A model generated the notes under the pieces. It was not told the DNA's origin. It did not search any database and saw only the letters and a list, made by a program, of their open reading frames with translations. Positions 47,730 to 62,528 of a stretch of DNA of 64,000 bases are shown one piece after another. A program made the translations under genes and the position numbers. Every line of letters starts with the position of its first letter. Position 1 is the first letter of the stretch. The DNA is from Molossus alvarezi. Taxonomy: Eukaryota > Chordata > Mammalia > Chiroptera > Molossidae. The DNA lies in contig CM073889.1 in the NCBI GenBank assembly GCA_037176705.1, positions 105,107,890 through 105,171,889 of the forward strand, in the 5' to 3' direction.

Positions 47730-47807
47730 AAGGTTGCAGCTATAAAGGACAATGAAAAGGCTGGAAAATGTTTCTGGAGTTGAGTTTGAAATATTGGCAG
47801 CGGAAAC
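47730..47807 (+). pseudogene. Decayed former amino-terminal coding segment of DYNAP
   Basis: Read in the frame of the ATG at 47808, this stretch gives K-V-A-A-I-K-D-N-E-K-A-G-K-C-F-W-S, stop, V, stop, then N-I-G-S-G-N before Met. It aligns without gaps to the first 26 residues of human DYNAP as I recall them (VA, IK, NE, K, W and GS positions match). The human start codon position is AAG here, and TGA codons fall at 47781-47783 and 47787-47789. The former coding part is therefore likely 5' untranslated now. An out-of-frame upstream ATG at 47711 would open a 14-codon frame ending at 47755, if this part is transcribed. Confidence 0.75.
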
Positions 47808-47864
47808 ATGGACAGAAAACATGGGAAATACATAGTGAATATTGAACACTCTGGAAACCAGCCG
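47808..47864 (+). CDS. DYNAP: DYNAP coding exon 1 (start codon)
   Basis: Nineteen codons, starting MDRKHGKYIVNIEHSG, end at a consensus donor gtgagt (47865). I chose this ATG because it has A at -3 and G at +4, and because the frame upstream is closed by TGA at 47787 and 47781. In human DYNAP the equivalent Met is internal, about 26 residues from the amino end, so this exon is shortened in coding terms. The exon itself probably extends upstream as 5' untranslated sequence, since similarity to the human amino terminus continues back to about 47730. Confidence 0.9.
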
Positions 47865-50800: not shown

Positions 50801-53800
50801 TTCTTTCACAAACTGCCTAGTTCTTTTGAAAAGGGGATGGCATGAATAATATTAAGGTCACAGAACCCATATCATGAAAAATAACTGTTTTGAATGTTAA
50901 ACTAACTTGCATTCCTGGGGTATACCTTACTGGGGTATACGATTTTATTTATTTATTTATTTATTATTTATTTATTTATTTTATTTTTGTTACAGATGTT
51001 TCTCCTTTTTTTCCCCATTGACACCCTCCTCCCCATCCCCTCCACCCCGTCCCTGCTTTGTTGTTCATGTCCATCGGTTATGTGTACATGCATGTAAGTT
51101 CTGTGGTTTATCTCTTCCCTCCCCCCACCACCCCCTCTTCTGAGGGTTGTCAGTCTGTACCCTACTTCCACGTCTCTGGGTCTACCCTGTTCCTCAGACT
51201 GTTATGTTCATTATATTGCACAAATAAGTGAGATCATGTGGTATGGTCACGATTTTTTAACCTGTTTATATTTGTGGTGGGGTGGGGGGTCGATTTGCTC
51301 TTCTTTTGTTTATAATGTTTGTACCTATGTTCTTGAGAGACTGGCCTTTGGGGGTTTCAAAGTCAACCCTTTAGCTTCCTATGCCAGGCAGCCTCAAAAT
51401 CTGACAAATGTCCTTAGTGGGGAACCAGCTGCCACTAACTGGCTGTGTGAATTCTGAAAGCATCTGGACTTCCCGACCACTCTTCTCCCAGCAGGACTTT
51501 ATCTCCAGTCCCTGTGATGCTGCTGGAGTCTTCACGCTGACTTTCCTTTCCAGGCCCAGCCTCCTGAACCAGCCCAGAACCTTACACTGGCCTGTCGCTG
51601 GGGCTCCGCTGTTTTTCAGTCTTTCATACGCCAGACTGAACACCAAGAGTTCTGCTCACTTCTTTTGGTGGTCAGGCCTCAGCTCCTACTCAGAATCAAC
51701 AAACGCCCCCAGAAGAGAAAATGGCCCATGATAGCTGGATCACTTGGTGAAGCTCGTTCAAACTCCTTTAAATTTTAAATAATCTAAATTTCACATCTTT
51801 CAAAGCTCTTCAGTTATTTTTACTGATTGATTGATTGCAGTGGGTGAAGTGGCCTATTGCAATTTACTGTATCCTGATTCTCACTTCAACTCTTTAGATC
51901 TTGGTTTTCTCATTTTTAATGTGATCCAAAAAAAAAAATGTTCTGTTTTTAAAATGTTTATTGATTTGAGAGAGAGAGAGAGAGAGAGAGAAACATTGAT
52001 TTGTTGTTTCACTTTTATGTGCATTCACTGGTTGCTTCTTCTATGTGCCTTTACCCTGACTCAAACCCACAGTCTTGGTGTATTGGGACAATACTCTAGC
52101 CAACTGAGCTTACCTGGCCAGGACCAAAAAAGTATTATTATTATTTTTTTAATTCTCATTTGAGGATGATGTTTATTGATTTGAGATAGAGATAGAAAGA
52201 GAAATCTCAATTGGTTACCCCCAACCGTACGTGCCCTGACTGGGGATTGAACTTGCAACCGAGGTATGTTCCCTGACCAGGAATCAAACCCACAGCCTTT
52301 TGGTGTATGGGATGATGCTCCAACCAGCCTAGTCACTGGCCAGAGCCTAAAAGGTTGTTCTTGGTAAGCATTAAGGTCTCTAAAATTTTCACTGTGAGAC
52401 GTTTTTTCTTATATATATATATAAAACCTCCTTATACTAGCTTGCCATATAATAATATTTAACAAATGCATTAAATATGATAAGGACAAAAGATAATGAT
52501 TATTCCTGGACTTTAACATCAATAATTGTATAAAATAATAAACTGTAACTTGTGATGATTATATTGTTTTGAGAAAAAATACAGTGAATGTATTAATTCA
52601 TTCTTTCAGTTAGGTTTCAAATAAATTTATTTGATCAAGTATGTCATAATATGTTAATATCTGATTTATGTTTGTCAGAATGATTTACTATAACCATCAA
52701 ATATACTAGCTCCTATTTTTCTCCATTCTTTTCATATACAGCCATTTCTGAGTACAAAAAACCATGAAGCTCATAGTTCAGCATATCAGTTTCCAGCATC
52801 AACTGATGTAGCTGGTGATGTTGATACCAATTTAACTGCTGTCTGCACCAATACAGGGACCCTTGGACACTCAGAATTTCCAAACAGAGAATTACAACCT
52901 TGTCAGGTAATGTTTGGGGCAGCACTGTTTCTCTGGGTTATGATGTAATTCACATGGAAATACTCTTGATCTGATATTTTGAAGGAAAACTATTCAGTTA
53001 ACAACACTGTCCTTTGAAAATCTACAGCATATTTTAAACATGTTAGGTCACTGAGAGGGAGTGCAAGAAACATAGATTTATGGGGCTCTTCATTTAGAGA
53101 GTTAATGATTGTGATGGAGAGACAAACACATACACAACTTAGAGAAAATATGTAAGGGTCAAAGAAAATAAAGCTTTGGGCTCTCTGTTTTATTTAAGGA
53201 CTTGAAAAGGTGATGACAGCAATTGCATTGGCAGAGAATGACACTGTAACCTTTGCTCAGGTGGGGGATGAAGTCATGTGTTAAGGCCCTGGGGCCCCAG
53301 TCTGTGGGTAATCTGCCTCACTCTCCTTCCCACCCTACCTCTGAGCCAGCTGTGGCCTTCTGTTAGCCCTCCTGGTTCTGACCTCATGTGTTTTCAGCCT
53401 TGACTTAGAAACCATTTAGCACTATTGGTTTGGTACCCAGAAGCAGATTTCCCATATCCATGACCCTTTTTCTTGTTATTCTATTTTCTTCACCTTAAGG
53501 TCTGACCTCTGAGCAACCCCCTGACCCCCCACCAAGGTGAACACTTGACTTTGATTGATCGATAATGATGCTGGGCAGTTTGGTTCAATACTTCTAGCTC
53601 TGATCTACACCCCTCCTCTTGTTAATCCTATTATCGGGACAGTTTGGAAAGACTCTGACAAAGTAAAAGAGGATAAACTCTTTATGTCGAGGGATATTGT
53701 GGAAGAGTGCATTGGTGGATAGGAATTATTTAGAGACCATGTCTCTGATGACCTCAAACAAACAAACCAGACCAATCAGAGAGCTGCAAGTTATTTTAGA

Positions 53801-56800
53801 TGCATTTACTTAGTAGAAACAGATGAAAAAAAAAGTGGTCTGGGAATTTGGAATGATTTAAGAATACACACCGCTGGGTAGTGGCAGAGGTAGCACCAGA
53901 GCACAGGTCTCAGGGCACGTTACCATGTGTTTTTATTAATCTTGCTCCTCTTTTTAATGATTCAAACCAAAAATGAGGGTAATCACCTCCCTTGGATGTG
54001 AGTATGGTCCTTCCTCTCCTTCCCTTTTGACTTCCTTTCTAAGACCTGAATGCCATAGGGTGGGAGGTACCATTCGTCCTTGGGATCTCTCAGTTGGTGC
54101 CCTGAGTCCCCTTGTCCTTAGTACCCAATGTCCTTGCACTGCTTCTGCCTGCCTGGTGGGTGCCCCTCTCGACACCCAGCACGAGGTTTATTTACCATCC
54201 GAGACAATGTTCCATATTTCCCAACACATAAGAGCTACTCTACAGGCTCCAAAGACATTTGCTCTGTGTTTGTTTCCTCTAGTGATGTTTCAGTTCTAAG
54301 AAAGGGGATAATAATGAAGCAACTAGTGGACTCATATGTTTTTTTTGAATACTTAGTAAGTGTAGGGAAACATTACCCATATTGTTTTCTTTTTTACTAT
54401 TTACAGCAACACTATGTAATAGGTCATAAGATCCACATGAGGGAATCGTGGCTTTGAAATATAATGCAAATTTCCAAATATCATCATCCATCTAGTGAAA
54501 GGTGGAGTTAAAATTTAACCCAAAATCTTTTAGACTCTGTGCCTATGCTCATAATTACTACAATGAACTGCCTTTGGCAAGAATTTAATTATGGAGGTTA
54601 TTTCTGATTTTAATTTTCTCAACAACACTTTGAAGTAGATATAATTAGCTCCACTTTTGTTGTAAGGCAAATTGAAAATTAGGTTAAAACACTTGCTCAT
54701 ATTAATGGTATGGGATTTAAATTCAAGACCTTCTGACCTGAAGACTTACATATTTTACACTATGCAGTGTTTCCTCTACAATAACAAATTATATATAGAG
54801 AAATATATAAATTATATGTATATAAACTACATATATTTATATATAATTTATTATATATAATATTAGAATTTAAAAAGTAATTTACTGACATTAATCCTTA
54901 TTCTCATAATTAATCCTTATTCTCATAATCTTATCACGTACATTTTTATGGATGAAAGAATAAGGCCAAAGAGGTGAGCTTCTCACCCAGTGGAAATAGT
55001 TGGTGGCGATAGAAGTGGGGTTTCAGCAAATGTTTTCAGACTCTAAGACTCATCCTGCCAAATGCTAACCTGTGTGAAAGTCAGCTAGGGAATTTGATAA
55101 GCCATTAATGCACTTAACATGGAAGGCTCTGAAATAGCTATATGTCTGAGAGTTGACAAGCCAGAAGGGGAGGAAAATTTCATCAGAATGATCTCTTGGG
55201 TTACGCAAATCACTGCGTGGTCTGCACATGCAGAGATACTGCTTTTGATAGTGGGAAGAATAAAGAGTTTCTGAGAAGATATTCATTACTTTTCTTTTTA
55301 TAAATTTTATTTGAGATACAGATATAGGAAAAGAAAGCATGGGAAATAAGTGGAAATTTTTTTGTTCCTATATTAAAGACAGTAAGAAGACCAAGTCTTT
55401 CCTAGATGAAATCTTAGAGTCATTCTTTCTTATGAGAAACCATTAACAGTGTTTTATGTATCAATGCATTAATTTTTTGAAAGATTTGGTTTTATCTTAA
55501 GTAATTCTGTGTAAATCCTTTCCAGGTGACACGAAATTTCTTTAGTGACTGGTCTCTGTGGAAGATTTTCCTGGCTTGTCTGTTAGCCTCTGTGATAACG
55601 ACAGCGATTGGAGTACTCATAATGTCTTTGGTGTCTAACAGGAAAAATAATGCCCCCATTGTTATCCAACTTCCCTCCAATCATGGGACAACCTCATCTG
55701 CAAGTGAAACAGGTTCTGAGCCTTCACTCCCCACTGCCACATCAGCTTCAACCGCACCATCCACTTCAACTACCATGGCCACAACCATGGGGGGCACTGC
55801 AACGGGAGGGGCCAGCACAGCCACCACGGCCCAAACAAACACTGCAGCAGCGGGAGGCTCCACTGCGTCTGAAGCAACCACAATGACTGCAGGTGCTACA
55901 CCTGCAGCTACGACCCAAACGGCCAGCACAGCTGCTTCTGCTGCATCTGCAACCACAGCAGCAGCCACAGCTTCCGAGGCAGGAACGGCCACCGAGGCTG
56001 CACACACACCTGACACCACTACTGCTTCTGAGCGACGTACAACCACCACAGCAACAGATGCCACTTCGACAGAAACGTCAACAACGGCAGTTCCCACTCC
56101 AAATGAAACTACTTCCACCACTCCTGCTAGCACTACCACTGAAGCTACAGCCCCTACAACCACGACTTCTATGGAACTGGCAACAACCACAGCTGGCACA
56201 ACGTCACCTGAAACAACTACCATAACAACAACCAGCACTACCACTGAGGCTACAGCCCCAGTTACCACTACTTCTTCTACGGAAACTGCAACCACCACAG
56301 CTGGCACACCTTCAGCAGAGCCAACTACCATAACAACTACTAGCACTACCACTAAGGATACAGCCCCAATTACCATGACATCGTCTACACAACCTGCAAC
56401 CACCACAGCAGGAACAACTTCATCTGAACCTACCACTCAGGCCACAACCCCAATTACCACAACTTCTTCTATGGAACCTGCAACCACCACAGCTGGCACA
56501 ACATCACCTGAAACAACTACTATAATACCTACCAGCACTACCACTGAGGCTACACCCCCAATTACCATGACTTCTTCTACACAACCTGCAACCACCACAG
56601 CAGGAACAACTTCATCTAAACCTACCACTCAAGCCACAATCTCAATTACCACTACTTCCTCAATGAAACCTACAACCTACACAGTAGTCACCACTTCACC
56701 AGGGAAAACTAGCACAACACCTGCCAGCACTACCACTAAGACTACAACCTCAATTACTACTAATTCTATGGAACATACAACCACCACAGCTGTCACAACT

Positions 56801-59800
56801 TCGGCAGAGCCAACTATCATAATGACTACCAGCACTACCACTGAAGCTGCAACCCCAATTACCATGACTTCTTCTACAGTACCTGCAACCACAACAGCTG
56901 GCACAACATCTCCTGAAACAACTACCATAACAACTACTAGCACTACTACTGAGGCTACAACCCCAATTACCAAGACGTCTTCTACACAACCTGCAACCAC
57001 CACAGCAGGAACAACTTCATCTGAACCTACCACTCAAGCCACAACCCCAATTACCACAACTTCTTCTATGGAGCCTGCAACCACCACAGCTGGCACAACA
57101 TCACCTGAAACAACTACTATAACTACAGGCACCACAACTGAGGCTACACCCCCAATTACCATGACTTCTTCTACACAACCTGCAACCACCACAGCAGGAA
57201 CAACTTCACCTGAACCTACCGCTCAAGCCACAACTTCAATTACCACAACTTCTTCTATGAAACCTGCAACCACCACAGCTGGCACATCAGCAGAGCCAAC
57301 TACCATAACGACTACCAGCACTATCACTGAGGCTACAGCCCCAGTTACCATGACTTCTTCTACACAACCTGAAACCACCACAGCAGGAACAACTTCATCT
57401 GAACCTACCACTCAAGCCACAACCTCAATTACCACTACTTCCTCAATAAAACCTACAACTGACACAGTAGTCACCACTTCACCAGGGAAAACTAGCACAA
57501 CACCTGCCAGCACTACCACTAAGACTACAACCCTAATTCCCCCCTCTTCTTCTACGGAACCTGCAACAACCACAGCAGGCACCACTTCACCCGAACCAAC
57601 TACCACAACTCCTGCCAGCACTACCACTGTAGCTGCAACCCCAACTACCACGACTACATCTACAGAGCCTGCAACAACCACAGCTGGTACCAAAGCACCT
57701 GAACCAACTACCACAACACCTGCCAGCACTACCACTGAGGATACAACCCCAGTTACCATGACTTCTTCTACGAAGCCTACAACCACCACAGCTGGCACAA
57801 CATCACCTGAAACAACTACCATAACAACTACCAGCACTACTACTGAGGCTACAACCCCAATTACCATGACTTCTTCTACACAACCTGCAACCACCACAGC
57901 AGGAACAACTTCATCTGAACCTACCACTCAAGCTACAACCCCAATTACCACAACTTCTACGAAGCCTGCAACCACCACAGCTGGCACATCAGCAGAGCCA
58001 AGTACCATAACGACTACCAGCACTACTACTGAGGCTACAGCCCCAACTACCACGACTACTTCTACAGAACCTGCAACAACCACAGCTGGCACCACTGCAC
58101 CTGAACCAATTACCACAACTCCTGCCAGCACTACCACTGAATATCCAACCCCAGTTACCATGACTTCTTCTACGAAGCCTGCAACCACCACAGCTGGCAC
58201 AACATCACCTGAAACATCTACCATAACAACTACCAGCACTACTACTGAGGCTACAACCCCAATTACCATGACTTCTTCTACACAACCTGCAACCACCACA
58301 GCAGGAACAACTTCATCTGAACCTACCACTCAAGCCACAACCTCAATTACCACTACTTCCTCAATAAAACCTACAACTGACACAGTAGTCACCACTTCAC
58401 CAGGGAAAACTAGCACAACACCTGCCAGCACTACCACTAAGACTACAACCCTAATTCCCCCCTCTTCTTCTACGGAACCTGCAACAACCACAGCAGGCAC
58501 CACTTCACCCGAACCAACTACCACAACTCCTGCCAGCACTACCACTGTAGCTGCAACCCCAACTACCACGACTACGTCTACAGAGCCTGCAACAACCACA
58601 GCTGGTACCAAAGCACCTGAACCAACTACCACAACACCTGCCAGCAGTACCACTGAGGATACAACCCCAGTTACCATGACTTCTTCTACGAAGCCTACAA
58701 CCACCACAGCTGGCACAACATCACCTGAAACAACTACCATAACAACTACCAGCACTACTACTGAGGCTACAACCCCAATTACCATGACTTCTTCTACACA
58801 ACCTGCAACCACCACAGCAGGAACAACTTCATCTGAACCTACCACTCAAGCTACAACCCCAATTACCACAACTTCTACGAAGCCTGCAACCACCACAGCT
58901 GGCACATCAGCAGAGCCAAGTACCATAACGACTACCAGCACTACTACTGAGGCTACAGCCCCAACTACCACGACTACTTCTACAGAACCTGCAACAACCA
59001 CAGCTGGCACCACTGCACCTGAACCAATTACCACAACTCCTGCCAGCACTACCACTGAATATCCAACCCCAGTTACCATGACTTCTTCTACGAAGCCTGC
59101 AACCACCACAGCTGGCACAACATCACCTGAAACATCTACCATAACAACTACCAGCACTACTACTGAGGCTACAACCCCAATTACCATGACTTCTTCTACA
59201 CAACCTGCAACCACCACAGCAGGAACAACTTCATCTGAACCTACCACTCAAGCCACAACCTCAATTACCACTACTTCCTCAATAAAACCTACAACTGACA
59301 CAGTAGTCACCACTTCACCAGGGAAAACTAGCACAACACCTGCCAGCACTACCACTAAGACTACAACCCTAATTCCCCCCTCTTCTTCTACGGAACCTGC
59401 AACAACCACAGCAGGCACCACTTCACCCGAACCAACTACCACAACTCCTGCCAGCACTACCACTGTAGCTGCAACCCCAACTACCACGACTACTTCTACA
59501 GAGCCTGCAACAACCACAGCTGGTACCAAAGCACCTGAACCAACTACCACAACACCTGCCAGCACTACCACTGAGGATACAACCCCAGTTACCATGACTT
59601 CTTCTACGAAGCCTGCAACCACCACAGCTGGCACAACATCACCTGAAACAACTACCATAACAACTACCAGCACTACTACTGAGGCTACAACCCCAATTAC
59701 CATGACTTCTTCTACACAACCTGCAACCACCACAGCAGGAACAACTTCATCTGAACCTACCACTCAAGCCACAACCCCAATTGCCACAACTTCTTCTACG

Positions 59801-62416
59801 AAGCCTGCAATCACCACAGCTGGCTCATCAGCAGAGCCAAGTACCATAACGACTACCAGCACTACCACTGAGGCTACAACCCCAATTACCATGACTACTT
59901 CTACAGAACCTGCAACAACCACAGCAGGCACCACTTCACCCGAACCAACTACCACAACTCTTGCCAGCACTACCACTGTAGCTGCAACCCCAACTACCAC
60001 GACTACTTCTACAGAGCCTGCAACAACCACAGCTGGTACCAAAGCACCTGAACCAACTACCACAACACCTGCCAGCACTACCACTGAGGATACAACCCCA
60101 GTTACCATGACTTCTTCTACGAAGCCTGCAACCACCACAGCTGGCACAACATCACCTGAAACAACTACCATAACAACTACCAGCACTACTACTGAGGCTA
60201 CAACCCCAATTACCATGACTTCTTCTACACAACCTGCAACCACCACAGCAGGAACAACTTCATCTGAACCTACCACTCAAGCCACAACCCCAATTGCCAC
60301 AACTTCTTCTACGAAGCCTGCAATCACCACAGCTGGCTCATCAGCAGAGCCAAGTACCATAACGACTACCAGCACTACCACTGAGGCTACAACCCCAATT
60401 ACCATGACTACTTCTACAGAACCTGCAACAACCACAGCAGGCACCACTTCACCCGAACCAACTACCACAACTCTTGCCAGCACTACCACTGTAGCTGCAA
60501 CCCCAACTACCACGACTACTTCTACAGAGCCTGCAACAACCACAGCTGGTACCAAAGCACCTGAACCAACTACCACAACACCTGCCAGCACTACCACTGA
60601 GGATACAACCCCAGTTACCATGACTTCTTCTACGAAGCCTGCAACCACCACAGCTGGCACATCAGCAGAGCCAAGTACCATAACGACTACCAGCACTACC
60701 ACTGAGGCTACAGCCCCAGTTACCATGACTTCTACAGAACCTGCTACCACCACAGCAGGAACAACTTCATCTGAACCTACCACTCAAGCCTCAACCTCAA
60801 TTACCACTACTTCCTCAATGAAACCGACAACCGACACGGTAGTCACCACTTCACCAGGGCAAACTAGCACAACACCTGCCAGCACTACGACTGAGGCTAC
60901 AACCTCAATTACTATTAATTCTATGGAACCTACAACCACCACAACTGTCACAACTTCAGCAGAGCCAACTACCATAATGACTACCAGCACTACTACTGAG
61001 GCTACAACCCTATTTACCACGACTTCTCCTACAGAACCTGCTACCACCACAGCAGGTACCACTGCACCTGTACCAACTACCATAACGACTACCAGCACTA
61101 CCACTGAGGATACGACCCCAATTACCATGACTTCTTCTACGAAGCCTGCAACCACCACAGCTGGCACAACATCACCTGAAACAACTACCATAACGACTAC
61201 CAGCACTACCACTGAGGATACGACCCCAATTACCATGACTTCTTCTACACAACCTGCAACCACCACAGCAGGAACAACTTCATCTGAACCTACCACTCAA
61301 GCCACAACCTCAGTTACCACTACTTCCTCAATGAAACCTACAACCGACACGGTAGTCACCACTTCACCAGGGCAAACTAGCACAGCTCCTGCCAGCACTA
61401 CCACTGAGACTACAACTCTAATTACCCCCTCTTCTTCTACAGAACCTGCAACAACCACAGCAGGCACCACTTCACCCGAACCAACTACCACAACTCTTGC
61501 CAGCACTACCACTGTAGCTGCAACCCCAACTACCACGACTACTTCTACAGAGCCTGCAACAACCACAGCTGGTACCAAAGCACCTGAACCAACTACCACA
61601 ACACCTGCCAGCACTACCACTGAGGATACAACCCCAGTTACCATGACTTCTTCTACGAAGCCTGCAACCACCACAGCTGGCACATCAGCAGAGCCAAGTA
61701 CCATAATGACTACCAGCACTACCACTGAGGCTACAGCCCCAGTTACCATGACTTCTACAGAACCTGCTACCACCACAGCAGGAACAACTTCATCTGAACC
61801 TACCACTCAAGCCACAACCTCAGTTACCACTACTTCCTCAATGAAATCTACAACCGACACGGTAGTCACCACTTCACCAGGGCAAACTAGCACAGCTCCT
61901 GCCAGCACTACCACTGAGACTACAACTCTAATTACCCCCTCTTCTTCTACAGAGCCTGCAATGACCACAGCAGGCACCACTTCACCCGAACCAACTACCA
62001 CAGCTCTTGCCAGCACTACCACTGTAGCTGCAACCCCAACTACCATGACTTCTTCTACAGAACCTGCAACCACCACAGCAGGCAACACTTCACCTGAACC
62101 AACTACCACAACTCTTGCCAGCACTACCACTGAGGTTACAACCTCAATTACCACGACTTCTCCTACAGAACCTGCTACCACCACCACAGGCACCACTTCA
62201 CCTGAACCAACTACCATAACGACTACCAACACCACCACTGAGGATACAACACCAATTACCATGACTTCTTCTATGGAACCTGTAACCACCACAGCTGGCA
62301 CAACATCACCTGAAACAACTGCCATAACAACTACCAGCACTACCACTGAGGCTACAACCCCAATTACCACATCTTCTCCTACAGAACCTGCAACCACCAC
62401 AGCAGGCCCAATTTGA
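47808..62416 (+). CDS. DYNAP: DYNAP orthologue with giant mucin-like tail (whole gene, three coding exons)
   Basis: The coding sequence is the join of 47808-47864, 52742-52906 and 55526-62416, giving 19 + 55 + 2,296 = 2,370 residues and a TGA stop. All junctions are phase 0 with GT/AG sites (gtgagt, gtaatg; ...acag, ...ccag). Identity rests on exon 1 (MDRKHGKY start), exon 2 (EAHSS, NLT, VC in register with human) and the membrane block WSLWKIFLACLLAS followed by AIGVLI, compared with human DYNAP as I recall it. Human DYNAP is a small single-pass protein reported to associate with dynactin and to promote Akt activation. The predicted order is a cytosolic amino part (1-87), a membrane segment (about 88-110) and a Thr-rich carboxyl part that would have to be extracellular or luminal to be O-glycosylated, hence type II. 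No signal peptide is visible. Intron 1 is 4.9 kb and holds LINE-1 and SINE copies; intron 2 is 2.6 kb. The tail is about 50 times longer than the human one. Whether the full transcript is made is not shown by DNA alone. Confidence 0.92.
49505..49825 (+). repeat. Composite LINE-1 3' ends in DYNAP intron 1
   Basis: A bat L1 end (GAATGAGGACATCTGTAATAG, to about 49582) adjoins an older L1 3' region (AGAGTGAACCCTAAGG, GTGATGTTCATAATGGGGAGG, GTGTGGAGTC). Confidence 0.7.
50942..51245 (-). repeat. Bat LINE-1 3' end with (ATTT)n tail in DYNAP intron 1
   Basis: An ATTT run (50944-50985) is followed by TTGTTACAGATGTTTCTCC, CCCCATTGACACCCTCCTCC, CATCGGTTATGTGTACATGC and GCACAAATAAGTGAGATCATG, the complement of an L1 3' end. 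Confidence 0.78.
51955..52123 (-). repeat. Old tRNA-derived SINE in DYNAP intron 1
   Basis: GAGAGAGAGAGAGAGAGAAACA tract, CCTGACTCAAACCCACAGTC and a degraded head ending CTGGCCAGGA. It diverges from the younger copies. Confidence 0.75.
52144..52346 (-). repeat. Old tRNA-derived SINE in DYNAP intron 1
   Basis: TTCTCATTTGAGGATGATG, GAGATAGAGATAGAAAGAG, GACTGGGGATTGAACTTGCA and ACTGGCCAGAGCC. It lies about 20 bases from the preceding SINE, in the same orientation. Confidence 0.8.
52742..52906 (+). CDS. DYNAP: DYNAP coding exon 2
   Basis: Fifty-five codons lie between an acceptor (tttcatatacag, 52730-52741) and a donor gtaatg (52907). Length and phase equal those of the human exon as I recall it. 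Conserved points include P at the start, EAHSS, an N-L-T sequon followed by VC, and the final Q before the junction. The human CWC motif reads Y-Q-F here, so those cysteines are lost. The segment is hydrophilic and belongs to the amino side of the membrane segment. If that side is cytosolic, the sequon is not used. There is no frameshift or stop. Confidence 0.9.
54605..54775 (-). repeat. MIR-like SINE fragment in DYNAP intron 2
   Basis: CAACAACACTTTGAAGTAG, GGCAAATTGAAAATTAGGT and TTCAAGACCTTCTGACCTGAAG resemble the complement of a diverged MIR. Confidence 0.5.
54785..54865. repeat. AT-rich low-complexity tract
   Basis: Imperfect TATA/ATAT runs lie between 54785 and 54865 in DYNAP intron 2. 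Confidence 0.9.
55526..62416 (+). CDS. DYNAP: DYNAP terminal exon: membrane segment plus about 2.2-kresidue mucin-like domain
   Basis: The exon opens after the acceptor ttccag (55520-55525) with GTG as an internal Val codon, not a start, and runs 2,296 codons to TGA at 62414-62416. Exon residues 1-50 hold N-F-F-S-D-W-S-L-W-K, the membrane helix and I-V-I-Q-L, all matching human DYNAP. From about 55688 the protein is Thr/Ser/Ala/Pro-rich with no Cys in the tail. One typical 36-residue unit contains 19 Thr, 4 Ser and 3 Pro. Acidic residues (Glu, some Asp) recur about once or twice per unit and Lys or Arg is rare. N-glycosylation sequons occur at NET (56102), near NTS (62084) and near NTT (62227). 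The chain ends T-A-G-P-I without a second membrane segment. An unbroken frame through 6.9 kb of repeats argues for a maintained protein or a very recent expansion. Confidence 0.9.
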   Translation: MTRNFFSDWSLWKIFLACLLASVITTAIGVLIMSLVSNRKNNAPIVIQLPSNHGTTSSASETGSEPSLPTATSASTAPSTSTTMATTMGGTATGGASTATTAQTNTAAAGGSTASEATTMTAGATPAATTQTASTAASAASATTAAATASEAGTATEAAHTPDTTTASERRTTTTATDATSTETSTTAVPTPNETTSTTPASTTTEATAPTTTTSMELATTTAGTTSPETTTITTTSTTTEATAPVTTTSSTETATTTAGTPSAEPTTITTTSTTTKDTAPITMTSSTQPATTTAGTTSSEPTTQATTPITTTSSMEPATTTAGTTSPETTTIIPTSTTTEATPPITMTSSTQPATTTAGTTSSKPTTQATISITTTSSMKPTTYTVVTTSPGKTSTTPASTTTKTTTSITTNSMEHTTTTAVTTSAEPTIIMTTSTTTEAATPITMTSSTVPATTTAGTTSPETTTITTTSTTTEATTPITKTSSTQPATTTAGTTSSEPTTQATTPITTTSSMEPATTTAGTTSPETTTITTGTTTEATPPITMTSSTQPATTTAGTTSPEPTAQATTSITTTSSMKPATTTAGTSAEPTTITTTSTITEATAPVTMTSSTQPETTTAGTTSSEPTTQATTSITTTSSIKPTTDTVVTTSPGKTSTTPASTTTKTTTLIPPSSSTEPATTTAGTTSPEPTTTTPASTTTVAATPTTTTTSTEPATTTAGTKAPEPTTTTPASTTTEDTTPVTMTSSTKPTTTTAGTTSPETTTITTTSTTTEATTPITMTSSTQPATTTAGTTSSEPTTQATTPITTTSTKPATTTAGTSAEPSTITTTSTTTEATAPTTTTTSTEPATTTAGTTAPEPITTTPASTTTEYPTPVTMTSSTKPATTTAGTTSPETSTITTTSTTTEATTPITMTSSTQPATTTAGTTSSEPTTQATTSITTTSSIKPTTDTVVTTSPGKTSTTPASTTTKTTTLIPPSSSTEPATTTAGTTSPEPTTTTPASTTTVAATPTTTTTSTEPATTTAGTKAPEPTTTTPASSTTEDTTPVTMTSSTKPTTTTAGTTSPETTTITTTSTTTEATTPITMTSSTQPATTTAGTTSSEPTTQATTPITTTSTKPATTTAGTSAEPSTITTTSTTTEATAPTTTTTSTEPATTTAGTTAPEPITTTPASTTTEYPTPVTMTSSTKPATTTAGTTSPETSTITTTSTTTEATTPITMTSSTQPATTTAGTTSSEPTTQATTSITTTSSIKPTTDTVVTTSPGKTSTTPASTTTKTTTLIPPSSSTEPATTTAGTTSPEPTTTTPASTTTVAATPTTTTTSTEPATTTAGTKAPEPTTTTPASTTTEDTTPVTMTSSTKPATTTAGTTSPETTTITTTSTTTEATTPITMTSSTQPATTTAGTTSSEPTTQATTPIATTSSTKPAITTAGSSAEPSTITTTSTTTEATTPITMTTSTEPATTTAGTTSPEPTTTTLASTTTVAATPTTTTTSTEPATTTAGTKAPEPTTTTPASTTTEDTTPVTMTSSTKPATTTAGTTSPETTTITTTSTTTEATTPITMTSSTQPATTTAGTTSSEPTTQATTPIATTSSTKPAITTAGSSAEPSTITTTSTTTEATTPITMTTSTEPATTTAGTTSPEPTTTTLASTTTVAATPTTTTTSTEPATTTAGTKAPEPTTTTPASTTTEDTTPVTMTSSTKPATTTAGTSAEPSTITTTSTTTEATAPVTMTSTEPATTTAGTTSSEPTTQASTSITTTSSMKPTTDTVVTTSPGQTSTTPASTTTEATTSITINSMEPTTTTTVTTSAEPTTIMTTSTTTEATTLFTTTSPTEPATTTAGTTAPVPTTITTTSTTTEDTTPITMTSSTKPATTTAGTTSPETTTITTTSTTTEDTTPITMTSSTQPATTTAGTTSSEPTTQATTSVTTTSSMKPTTDTVVTTSPGQTSTAPASTTTETTTLITPSSSTEPATTTAGTTSPEPTTTTLASTTTVAATPTTTTTSTEPATTTAGTKAPEPTTTTPASTTTEDTTPVTMTSSTKPATTTAGTSAEPSTIMTTSTTTEATAPVTMTSTEPATTTAGTTSSEPTTQATTSVTTTSSMKSTTDTVVTTSPGQTSTAPASTTTETTTLITPSSSTEPAMTTAGTTSPEPTTTALASTTTVAATPTTMTSSTEPATTTAGNTSPEPTTTTLASTTTEVTTSITTTSPTEPATTTTGTTSPEPTTITTTNTTTEDTTPITMTSSMEPVTTTAGTTSPETTAITTTSTTTEATTPITTSSPTEPATTTAGPI
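55565..55633 (+). other. DYNAP: Predicted transmembrane segment of DYNAP
   Basis: About 23 residues, I-F-L-A-C-L-L-A-S-V-I-T-T-A-I-G-V-L-I-M-S-L-V, are bounded by W-K on the amino side and S-N-R-K on the carboxyl side. This is the only hydrophobic span in the protein. The charge difference across it is small, so topology is inferred from the Thr-rich tail needing luminal exposure. Confidence 0.88.
55688..56112 (+). other. DYNAP: Ala/Thr-rich non-tandem start of the mucin-like tail
   Basis: About 140 residues of Ala/Thr/Ser with some Gly and Pro (T-A-T-G-G-A-S-T-A-T-T, A-A-S-A-A-S-A-T-T-A-A-A) do not follow the later repeat consensus. The segment lies next to the membrane segment and contains the only dibasic pair of the tail (E-R-R-T near 56030). 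It may be the oldest part of the extended tail, because it is irregular while the following array is homogenised. Confidence 0.7.
57412..58329 (+). repeat. Higher-order repeat, 918 bp, copy A
   Basis: This 306-codon block contains one V-V-T-T-S-P-G marker (GTAGTC at 57467) and several basic units. It is followed head to tail by copy B. By eye only two substitutions separate the two: actacatct (57651-57659) against actacgtct, and cagcact (57725-57731) against cagcagt. Confidence 0.88.
58330..59247 (+). repeat. Higher-order repeat, 918 bp, copy B
   Basis: This is the second copy, with its marker at 58385, exactly 918 bp after that of copy A. A third copy begins at 59248 (marker 59303) and follows for about 516 bp with a few changes, for example gcctgca for gcctaca, before passing into the 513-bp series. 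Confidence 0.88.
59764..60660 (+). repeat. 513-bp higher-order repeat, nearly two copies
   Basis: The block 59764-60276 is repeated from 60277 to about 60660 with no difference that I can see. It includes the distinctive C-A-A-T-T-G-C-C and G-G-C-T-C-A-T-C-A variants (Ile-Ala-Thr and Gly-Ser-Ser). The 513-bp period can also be followed back to about 59450 with minor changes (ctcctgcc against ctcttgcc). It ends where the unit switches to A-G-T-S-A-E-P. Confidence 0.85.
60784..62040 (+). repeat. 513/510-bp higher-order repeats with Gln-type marker
   Basis: Three V-V-T-T-S-P-G-Q-T-S-T markers lie at 60839, 61352 and 61862, spaced 513 and 510 bp. The 61297 and 61807 blocks are very similar for about 230 bp, with changes P to S, T to M and T to A. 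The 60570-60783 and 61590-61806 stretches are also near copies, showing repeated exchange over longer distances. Confidence 0.8.
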
Positions 62417-62522
62417 CCTGACCATTTAATATGAAGAGTCTCTATTTTTTGAGGTTTTAAATAATACAATTTTCATACAAAGTAAATCCAATCTATTTAT
62501 TTTTGTTGGAAACTTACGTTTT

Positions 62523-62528
62523 AATAAA
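62523..62528 (+). promoter_or_regulatory. Poly(A) signal AATAAA for DYNAP
   Basis: A canonical AATAAA lies about 107 bases after the stop codon at 62416, and it is the first one downstream. Further AATAAA motifs lie near 62892, 63609 and 63623, so longer 3' ends are possible. Confidence 0.65.

What the first reader, a model, noticed from the sequence alone, without database searches (positions are those of the whole stretch)
55526..62416. DYNAP turned into a giant membrane-anchored mucin-like protein
Exons 1-2 and the membrane helix are those of the small protein DYNAP, yet its last exon encodes about 2,200 further residues of Thr/Ser/Pro/Ala-rich tandem repeats in one open frame. Human DYNAP has only a short Thr-rich tail at the same place, which looks like the seed. 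The domain would project a long, densely O-glycosylated, mostly acidic brush from the membrane. I know of no description of DYNAP as a mucin. This is the strongest candidate in the window for an undescribed system.
Basis: partly seen in the sequence, partly recalled or inferred. Interest (0 to 1): 0.93.

Follow-up and report, generated by a model that had tools for sequence, protein, structure and literature searches.

The report
DYNAP-family gene with giant mucin-like tail
In this bat-like genome a gene of the small membrane protein DYNAP carries a single-exon tail of about 2,250 residues, almost half of them threonine, mostly in 61 tandem repeats, so it probably makes a giant sugar-coated, mucin-like surface protein anchored the opposite way round from ordinary membrane mucins.

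Summary
Exon 3 (55526-62416) is one open frame of 2,296 codons: a CLLAC-type membrane segment, then about 2,250 residues (T 46%, S 12%, P 10%, no Cys), of which 2,070 form 61 units of 27-36 residues. Exon 2 is 55 codons, the size of the human exon skipped in dynAPb. Synonymous changes between units are in excess (90 against 66.9 +/- 6.8), so the frame looks constrained, weakly. The human-type start is AAG here and exon 1 has two in-frame stops; the first usable start seen is 47808. The genome holds four CLLAC loci in a row, one a dead DYNAP-like copy 25 kb downstream that is at least as human-like, so orthology with human DYNAP is unproven. Papers put human DYNAP's C-terminus outside the cell with a modified T/S-rich tail. 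Best reading: mucinization of a type II protein, giving a mucin-like brush without SEA or VWD domain. Expression, glycosylation, array length and distribution in other species could not be tested.

The parts
47733..47807 (+). Exon-1 homologue upstream of the usable start: the place of the human MVA start codon reads AAG (47730-47732) and two in-frame TGA stops follow
   Evidence: aligned to human exon 1 recalled from memory
47808..47864 (+). Proposed coding part of exon 1 (MDRKHGKYIVNIEHSGNQP), ATG context GGAAACATGG, donor GTGAGT, ends in phase 0
52742..52906 (+). Exon 2, 165 nt = 55 codons, phase 0 both ends; same size as the 55 residues human dynAPb lacks
   Evidence: PMC8329785
55526..55669 (+). 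Start of exon 3: juxtamembrane segment, single transmembrane segment (Pfam CLLAC) and short flank
55670..56182 (+). Ala/Thr/Ser-rich stalk of 171 residues, not clearly periodic by eye
56183..62392 (+). 61 tandem units (27-36 aa), PTS/mucin-like array with higher-order repeats
57374..59209 (+). Two adjacent 918-bp higher-order copies, 2 mismatches in 918, no gap: recent duplication (or assembly duplication)
62393..62416 (+). End of the frame (TTTAGPI, TGA)
62417..62434 (+). In-frame codons after the stop read PDHLI*, resembling the human C-terminus (end of the human frame taken from a primer in PMC8329785); only suggestive of the ancestral exon end
   Evidence: 72 of 2000 shuffles score as high
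62523..62528 (+). First polyadenylation-signal hexamer after the stop

Best explanation
A DYNAP-family gene whose last exon gained an in-frame tandem array and so became a giant mucin-like protein. The N-terminus (about 85-90 residues, shorter than in human) lies in the cytoplasm, one helix crosses the membrane, and about 2,250 C-terminal residues stand outside as a Thr-dense, Cys-free, acidic stalk that the Golgi would O-glycosylate. Because the protein is type II, the free C-terminus is the outer tip: new repeats could be added in one terminal exon without disturbing a signal peptide, the helix or any folded domain. Likely role: glycocalyx brush on stratified squamous epithelium (mouth, oesophagus), where human DYNAP keeps company with MUC21. 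Shown: the frame, repeats, exon structure, CLLAC helix, weak constraint. Inferred by homology: topology, surface location, glycosylation. Inferred only: tissue and function.
For: Open frame and repeats. CLLAC at E 4e-16 and no other Pfam family at E up to 0.1 in 2,296 aa. Exon 2 size and phase match human. 223 inferred changes among 43 distinct units: synonymous 90 against 66.9 +/- 6.8 expected (0 of 2000 simulations as high), S/T losses 59 against 70.9 +/- 6.9 (4.6% as low), stops 0 against 2.9 (5.6% as low); overall pN/pS 0.61 and a parsimony ratio of 0.67. No GTAAGT, GTGAGT or GTRAG donor inside the exon. 2,122 of 2,197 windows of 100 aa have S+T >= 40% and P >= 5%. Human DYNAP: type II, C-terminus outside by flow cytometry, runs at about 43 kDa instead of 22.5 because of the T/S-rich region, O-glycosylation thought most likely by its authors (PMC8329785); glycosylation of the T/S cluster listed in a review table (PMC11976392, passage). 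MUC21 correlates with DYNAP, and likewise with KRT4, KRT13 and CRNN, at R > 0.7 in TCGA data (PMC13056625, figure legend).
Against: No RNA or protein evidence. Human-type start lost, two in-frame stops in exon 1, and two out-of-frame ATGs (47752, 47768) open frames overlapping the 47808 start if exon 1 is transcribed from upstream. Constraint is weak: pN/pS is about 1.05 for the closest 103 unit pairs, S/T gains are as expected by chance (19 against 18.1), and the simulation ignores the tree and gene conversion. Three AATAAA/ATTAAA hexamers (57445, 58363, 59281), two CAGGTR sites (55890, 61053) and 11 loose acceptor-like sites lie inside the exon. A duplicate in the same locus is dead. Orthology to human DYNAP unresolved.
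Confidence: 0.62

Rival explanations
1. A decaying or untranslated gene: N-terminal start lost, and the last exon holds a coding-derived minisatellite that grows by neutral slippage and unequal exchange and happens to be open because each new copy comes from an open unit.
For: Start codon lost and stops in exon 1; nearby copy dead; pN/pS near 1 among the youngest pairs; near-identical higher-order copies show that copying alone can spread open units.
Against: Synonymous excess 90 against 66.9 +/- 6.8 and position-2 changes lowest (54 against 70 expected); zero stops over 61 units; an in-frame ATG in good context remains; GT and AG splice dinucleotides intact.
Confidence: 0.25
2. The array is real and expressed but its length here is an assembly artefact: the true tail is shorter, or of another length.
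For: 918-bp copies with 2 mismatches; 513-bp copies with 1 mismatch.
Against: The window lies in a contig of 120.6 Mb and has no N; 43 of 61 units are distinct; taking out one copy of each near-identical block (918 + 513 bp) would still leave about 1,770 residues.
Confidence: 0.1
3. The tail is made but acts as an intracellular or secreted Thr-rich polymer, not as a surface mucin.
For: Topology here is inferred by homology only; R and K follow the helix on the side called outside.
Against: Human DYNAP C-terminus detected outside cells by flow cytometry; the helix segment is alike (33 of 55 residues at the start of exon 3 against recalled human).
Confidence: 0.05

Closest known systems
Human DYNAP (C18orf26), dynactin-associated protein
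   Same: Three coding exons, 55-codon exon 2, CLLAC-type transmembrane segment at the start of the last exon, T/S-rich C-terminus
   Different: Human protein is 210 aa with a 38-residue T/S-rich C-terminal region; here about 2,250 residues follow the helix region; the human start and the codons up to 47807 are not usable here
Membrane mucins (MUC1, MUC3, MUC4, MUC12, MUC13, MUC15, MUC16, MUC17, MUC21, MUC22)
   Same: Single-pass, long PTS tandem array, expected surface brush
   Different: They are type I with an N-terminal signal sequence, most with SEA cleavage (PMC9578598, passage); this one would be type II, with no SEA, EGF or VWD hit
Mucinization of non-mucin genes by exonic repeats (Pajic et al. 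2022, not held; seen only as described in PMC12776774, passages)
   Same: A gene outside the mucin families gains a repeated T/S-rich exon
   Different: The described precursors are proline-rich proteins (secreted, as I recall the unread paper); here the precursor is a type II membrane protein with a T/S cluster at its free end

Membership tests
DYNAP family | CLLAC domain (PF15675) | tested here: met
   E 4e-16, 58.7 bits against cut-off 25
DYNAP family | 55-codon exon 2 and TM plus T/S-rich tail in the last exon | tested here: met
DYNAP family | Intact human-type N-terminus (MVA start) | tested here: not met
   AAG at 47730-47732 and two in-frame stops; of the 7 ATGs listed only 47808 is open to the end
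DYNAP one-to-one orthologue | Closer to human DYNAP than any other copy in the genome | tested here: inconclusive
   identity to recalled human: window gene 81 of 152, dead copy 78 of 133; window gene to dead copy 58 of 131
DYNAP one-to-one orthologue | Synteny between C18orf54 and RAB27B | tested here: inconclusive
   no RAB27B match in the 194 kb joined around the window (recalled query); 14 LAS2-family and 4 RAB27B whole-genome requests did not complete
Mucin in the sense of Lang et al. 2006 | PTS domain | tested here: met
   2,122 of 2,197 windows pass S+T >= 40%, P >= 5% (thresholds chosen by me, not the PTSpred program)
Mucin in the sense of Lang et al. 2006 | VWD or SEA domain | tested here: not met
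   only CLLAC found in 2,296 aa at E up to 0.1; criterion, with MUC7 and MUC20 as exceptions, seen in PMC1552070 (passages)
Membrane mucin | Type I topology with N-terminal signal sequence | tested here: not met
   all 19-residue windows with hydropathy above 1.6 start between residues 84 and 94 of the gene model (no signal-peptide program run); human homologue is type II; criterion in PMC9578598
Mucin-like protein | Dense O-glycosylation | not testable with these tools
   composition only; argued or listed for the human tail in papers

The most novel reading that the evidence does not exclude
A new class of giant membrane mucin: type II, with the C-terminal tip outward and no SEA or VWD domain, born from a DYNAP-family gene by repeat growth in its last exon, forming a lineage-specific glycocalyx of the upper digestive epithelium and coupled inside the cell to a dynactin-binding tail.
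Probability: 0.4. Interest if true: 0.8.

Novelty: new variant of a known kind. Interest (0 to 1): 0.62.

Why it matters
It would be a clean case of a mucin-like protein arising from a gene outside the mucin families, with the precursor state (a short T/S cluster in human) and a dead relative in the same locus still visible. It would also show that a membrane mucin can be built in the type II orientation, where repeats grow at the free end of the protein. It is testable at once with RNA from oral epithelium and long-read alleles.

Tried and rejected
Considered and rejected: chance open frame; repeat spliced out through a strong donor (none of GTAAGT, GTGAGT, GTRAG in the exon; two CAGGTR sites exist); a second known domain in the tail. 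Led nowhere: human exon 0 in the window (19-mer from a primer in PMC8329785, 0 matches with up to 3 mismatches); neighbouring genes by Pfam on 10 of the 44 frames of 110 aa or more listed (0 of 10 with a hit); exons 1-2 of the short paralogue by simple motifs (nothing printed); the C-terminal end of the dead copy (best match lies at the edge of the searched stretch). The C-terminal PDHL match of the window gene is only suggestive: 72 of 2000 shuffles and 126 of 9,697 windows score as high. Frame-keeping of unit lengths is partly circular, since units were cut on the protein; of seven DNA comparisons, two had no gap, three had gaps of 3 only, and two had gaps of 4, 1, 3 and 3, which I take as alignment jitter.

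Papers: PMC8329785 parts 1 and 2 of 3; PMC4540312, PMC12776774, PMC11976392, PMC1552070, PMC9578598 and PMC13056625 passages only. Searches for print: DYNAP with mucin (2 papers; passages read in both; neither passage describes a mucin form of DYNAP), dynactin-associated protein (9 papers, listing), 'type II transmembrane mucin' (none), and (listings). Only open-licence papers are covered. Pajic et al. 2022 was not held.

Full report
What is there. The window is part of a 120.6-Mb contig of a 2.5-Gb genome (G000:C12:105107890-105171889). Its end carries a tRNA-like SINE of a type I recall from vesper-type bats, so the bat reading is plausible but rests on recall. On the + strand a three-exon gene can be drawn. 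Exon 3 begins after an acceptor at 55526 and runs 2,296 codons to TGA at 62414-62416. Exon 2 is 52742-52906, flanked by AG and GT, 165 nt, phase 0 at both ends. Human dynAPb lacks 55 residues through absence of exon 2 (PMC8329785). Exon 1 lies at 47733-47864 with donor GTGAGT.

The N-terminus differs. Where human dynAPa begins MVA, this genome has AAG, and two in-frame TGA codons follow. The next ATG in frame, 47808, corresponds to human Met27 (human sequence recalled). It is the first ATG in the stretch with A at -3 and G at +4 (GGAAACATGG; 47821 has the same context but another frame). If transcription begins upstream, two out-of-frame ATGs at 47752 and 47768 open short frames that overlap this start. 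An unseen first exon spliced straight to exon 2 is not excluded. The model protein has 2,370 residues, 234 kDa before sugars (the first join, left out the last codon of exon 1).

The tail. Counted from residue 49 of exon 3 there are 2,248 residues: T 1,026, S 273, P 228, A 247, E 125, no cysteine, three N-glycosylation sequons, net charge -103. The first 171 are Ala/Thr-rich and not clearly periodic. Then come 61 units of 27 to 36 residues, in higher-order repeats of about nine and five units. Two 918-bp copies differ at 2 sites and two 513-bp copies at 1 site, so the array is growing or was so recently; the same fact makes its exact length uncertain.

Is it coding? Zero stops in 2,070 codons against 15 to 328 in the other frames is expected of any repeat that began open, so I tested changes between units. 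On a tree of the 43 distinct units, 223 changes were inferred. Placing as many changes at random with the same base spectrum gives 66.9 +/- 6.8 synonymous; 90 were seen (0 of 2000 as high). Stops: 2.9 expected, 0 seen (5.6% of simulations). Losses of S/T: 70.9 expected, 59 seen (4.6%). Gains of S/T: 18.1 expected, 19 seen, no difference. The ratio pN/pS is 0.61 over all pairs, but about 1.05 in the 103 closest pairs, 0.72, 0.68 and 0.50 in the more distant classes. I read this as weak constraint, as one expects of a mucin-like tail; it does not show that the youngest copies are under selection, and the test ignores gene conversion.

The locus. A Pfam CLLAC search of the whole genome found four places (a lower bound by the tool's own warning), all on C12 and the same strand within 133 kb: 105078440 (L004), the window gene, 105188560 (L005) and 105211786 (L002); no hit in 14 control genomes. 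L005 is a dead DYNAP-like copy: exon-1, exon-2 and exon-3 relics at 105181737, 105184637 and 105188536, with an in-frame stop in exon 1, a frameshift in exon 3 and stops in a T/S-rich tail; the 1 kb that I read there shows no long array by eye. L002 is a short intact frame with an AG-GTT start like that of exon 3 and a Pro/Ser/Thr tail. Across 131 alignable sites the recalled human protein agrees with the window gene alone at 25, with the dead copy alone at 28, the two copies agree against human at 9, all agree at 49 and none at 20. So it cannot be said which copy is the orthologue. Both copies here have a stop codon at the same place in exon 1 (TGG AGT TGA and TGG AGT TAA), where the recalled human protein reads on: a point for a common origin after the human branch left, or for a derived state in human.

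How it works. Human DYNAP is type II; an antibody to its C-terminus labels cells in flow cytometry; it sits in Golgi and plasma membrane; its T/S-rich end makes it run at about twice its mass, most likely through O-glycosylation (PMC8329785; PMC4540312; PMC11976392). Carried over to this gene, the array would be an external, O-glycosylated brush of a few hundred nanometres (estimate from recalled mucin dimensions). Human DYNAP expression is reported as limited to oesophagus and spleen among normal tissues (PMC8329785), and MUC21 correlates with DYNAP, KRT4, KRT13 and CRNN in TCGA data (PMC13056625, legend), so wet stratified squamous epithelium is the likeliest place.

Against what is known. 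In Lang et al. mucins need a PTS domain plus VWD or SEA, MUC7 and MUC20 excepted (PMC1552070): the first is met by composition, the second not. Membrane mucins are described as type I (PMC9578598): not met. It works like a membrane mucin; it is not a member of those families. Gain of exonic T/S-rich repeats by unrelated genes is a known route (PMC12776774). What would be new is the precursor (a type II DYNAP-family protein) and the orientation. I found no print on a mucin form of DYNAP in the searches named under Tried and rejected, which cover open-licence papers only.

Limits. No bat or other mammalian relatives were available: the protein database was switched off and the species genomes held are, by the tool's description, prokaryotic.

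Noticed in passing
L002:1489-1827 (C12:105211774-105212112): A short intact CLLAC paralogue exon (112 aa, E 1.2e-17) about 41 kb downstream of the giant exon, with a Pro/Ser/Thr-rich tail; its upstream exons were not found.
   Followed up: partly
L005 and C12:105181737-105189300: Dead DYNAP-like tandem copy with relics of all three exons and a decayed T/S-rich tail.
   Followed up: yes
L004:1489-1700 (C12:105078428-105078639): A further CLLAC exon upstream of the window, apparently with a GTATGC donor after about 70 codons; gene not worked out.
   Followed up: no
window:63930-64000: tRNA-like SINE at the window's end, of a kind I recall from vesper-type bats.
   Followed up: no
window:55684-62472, minus strand: Long antisense open stretches (up to 251 aa) arise as the mirror of the repeat; no sign that they are genes.
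   Followed up: partly
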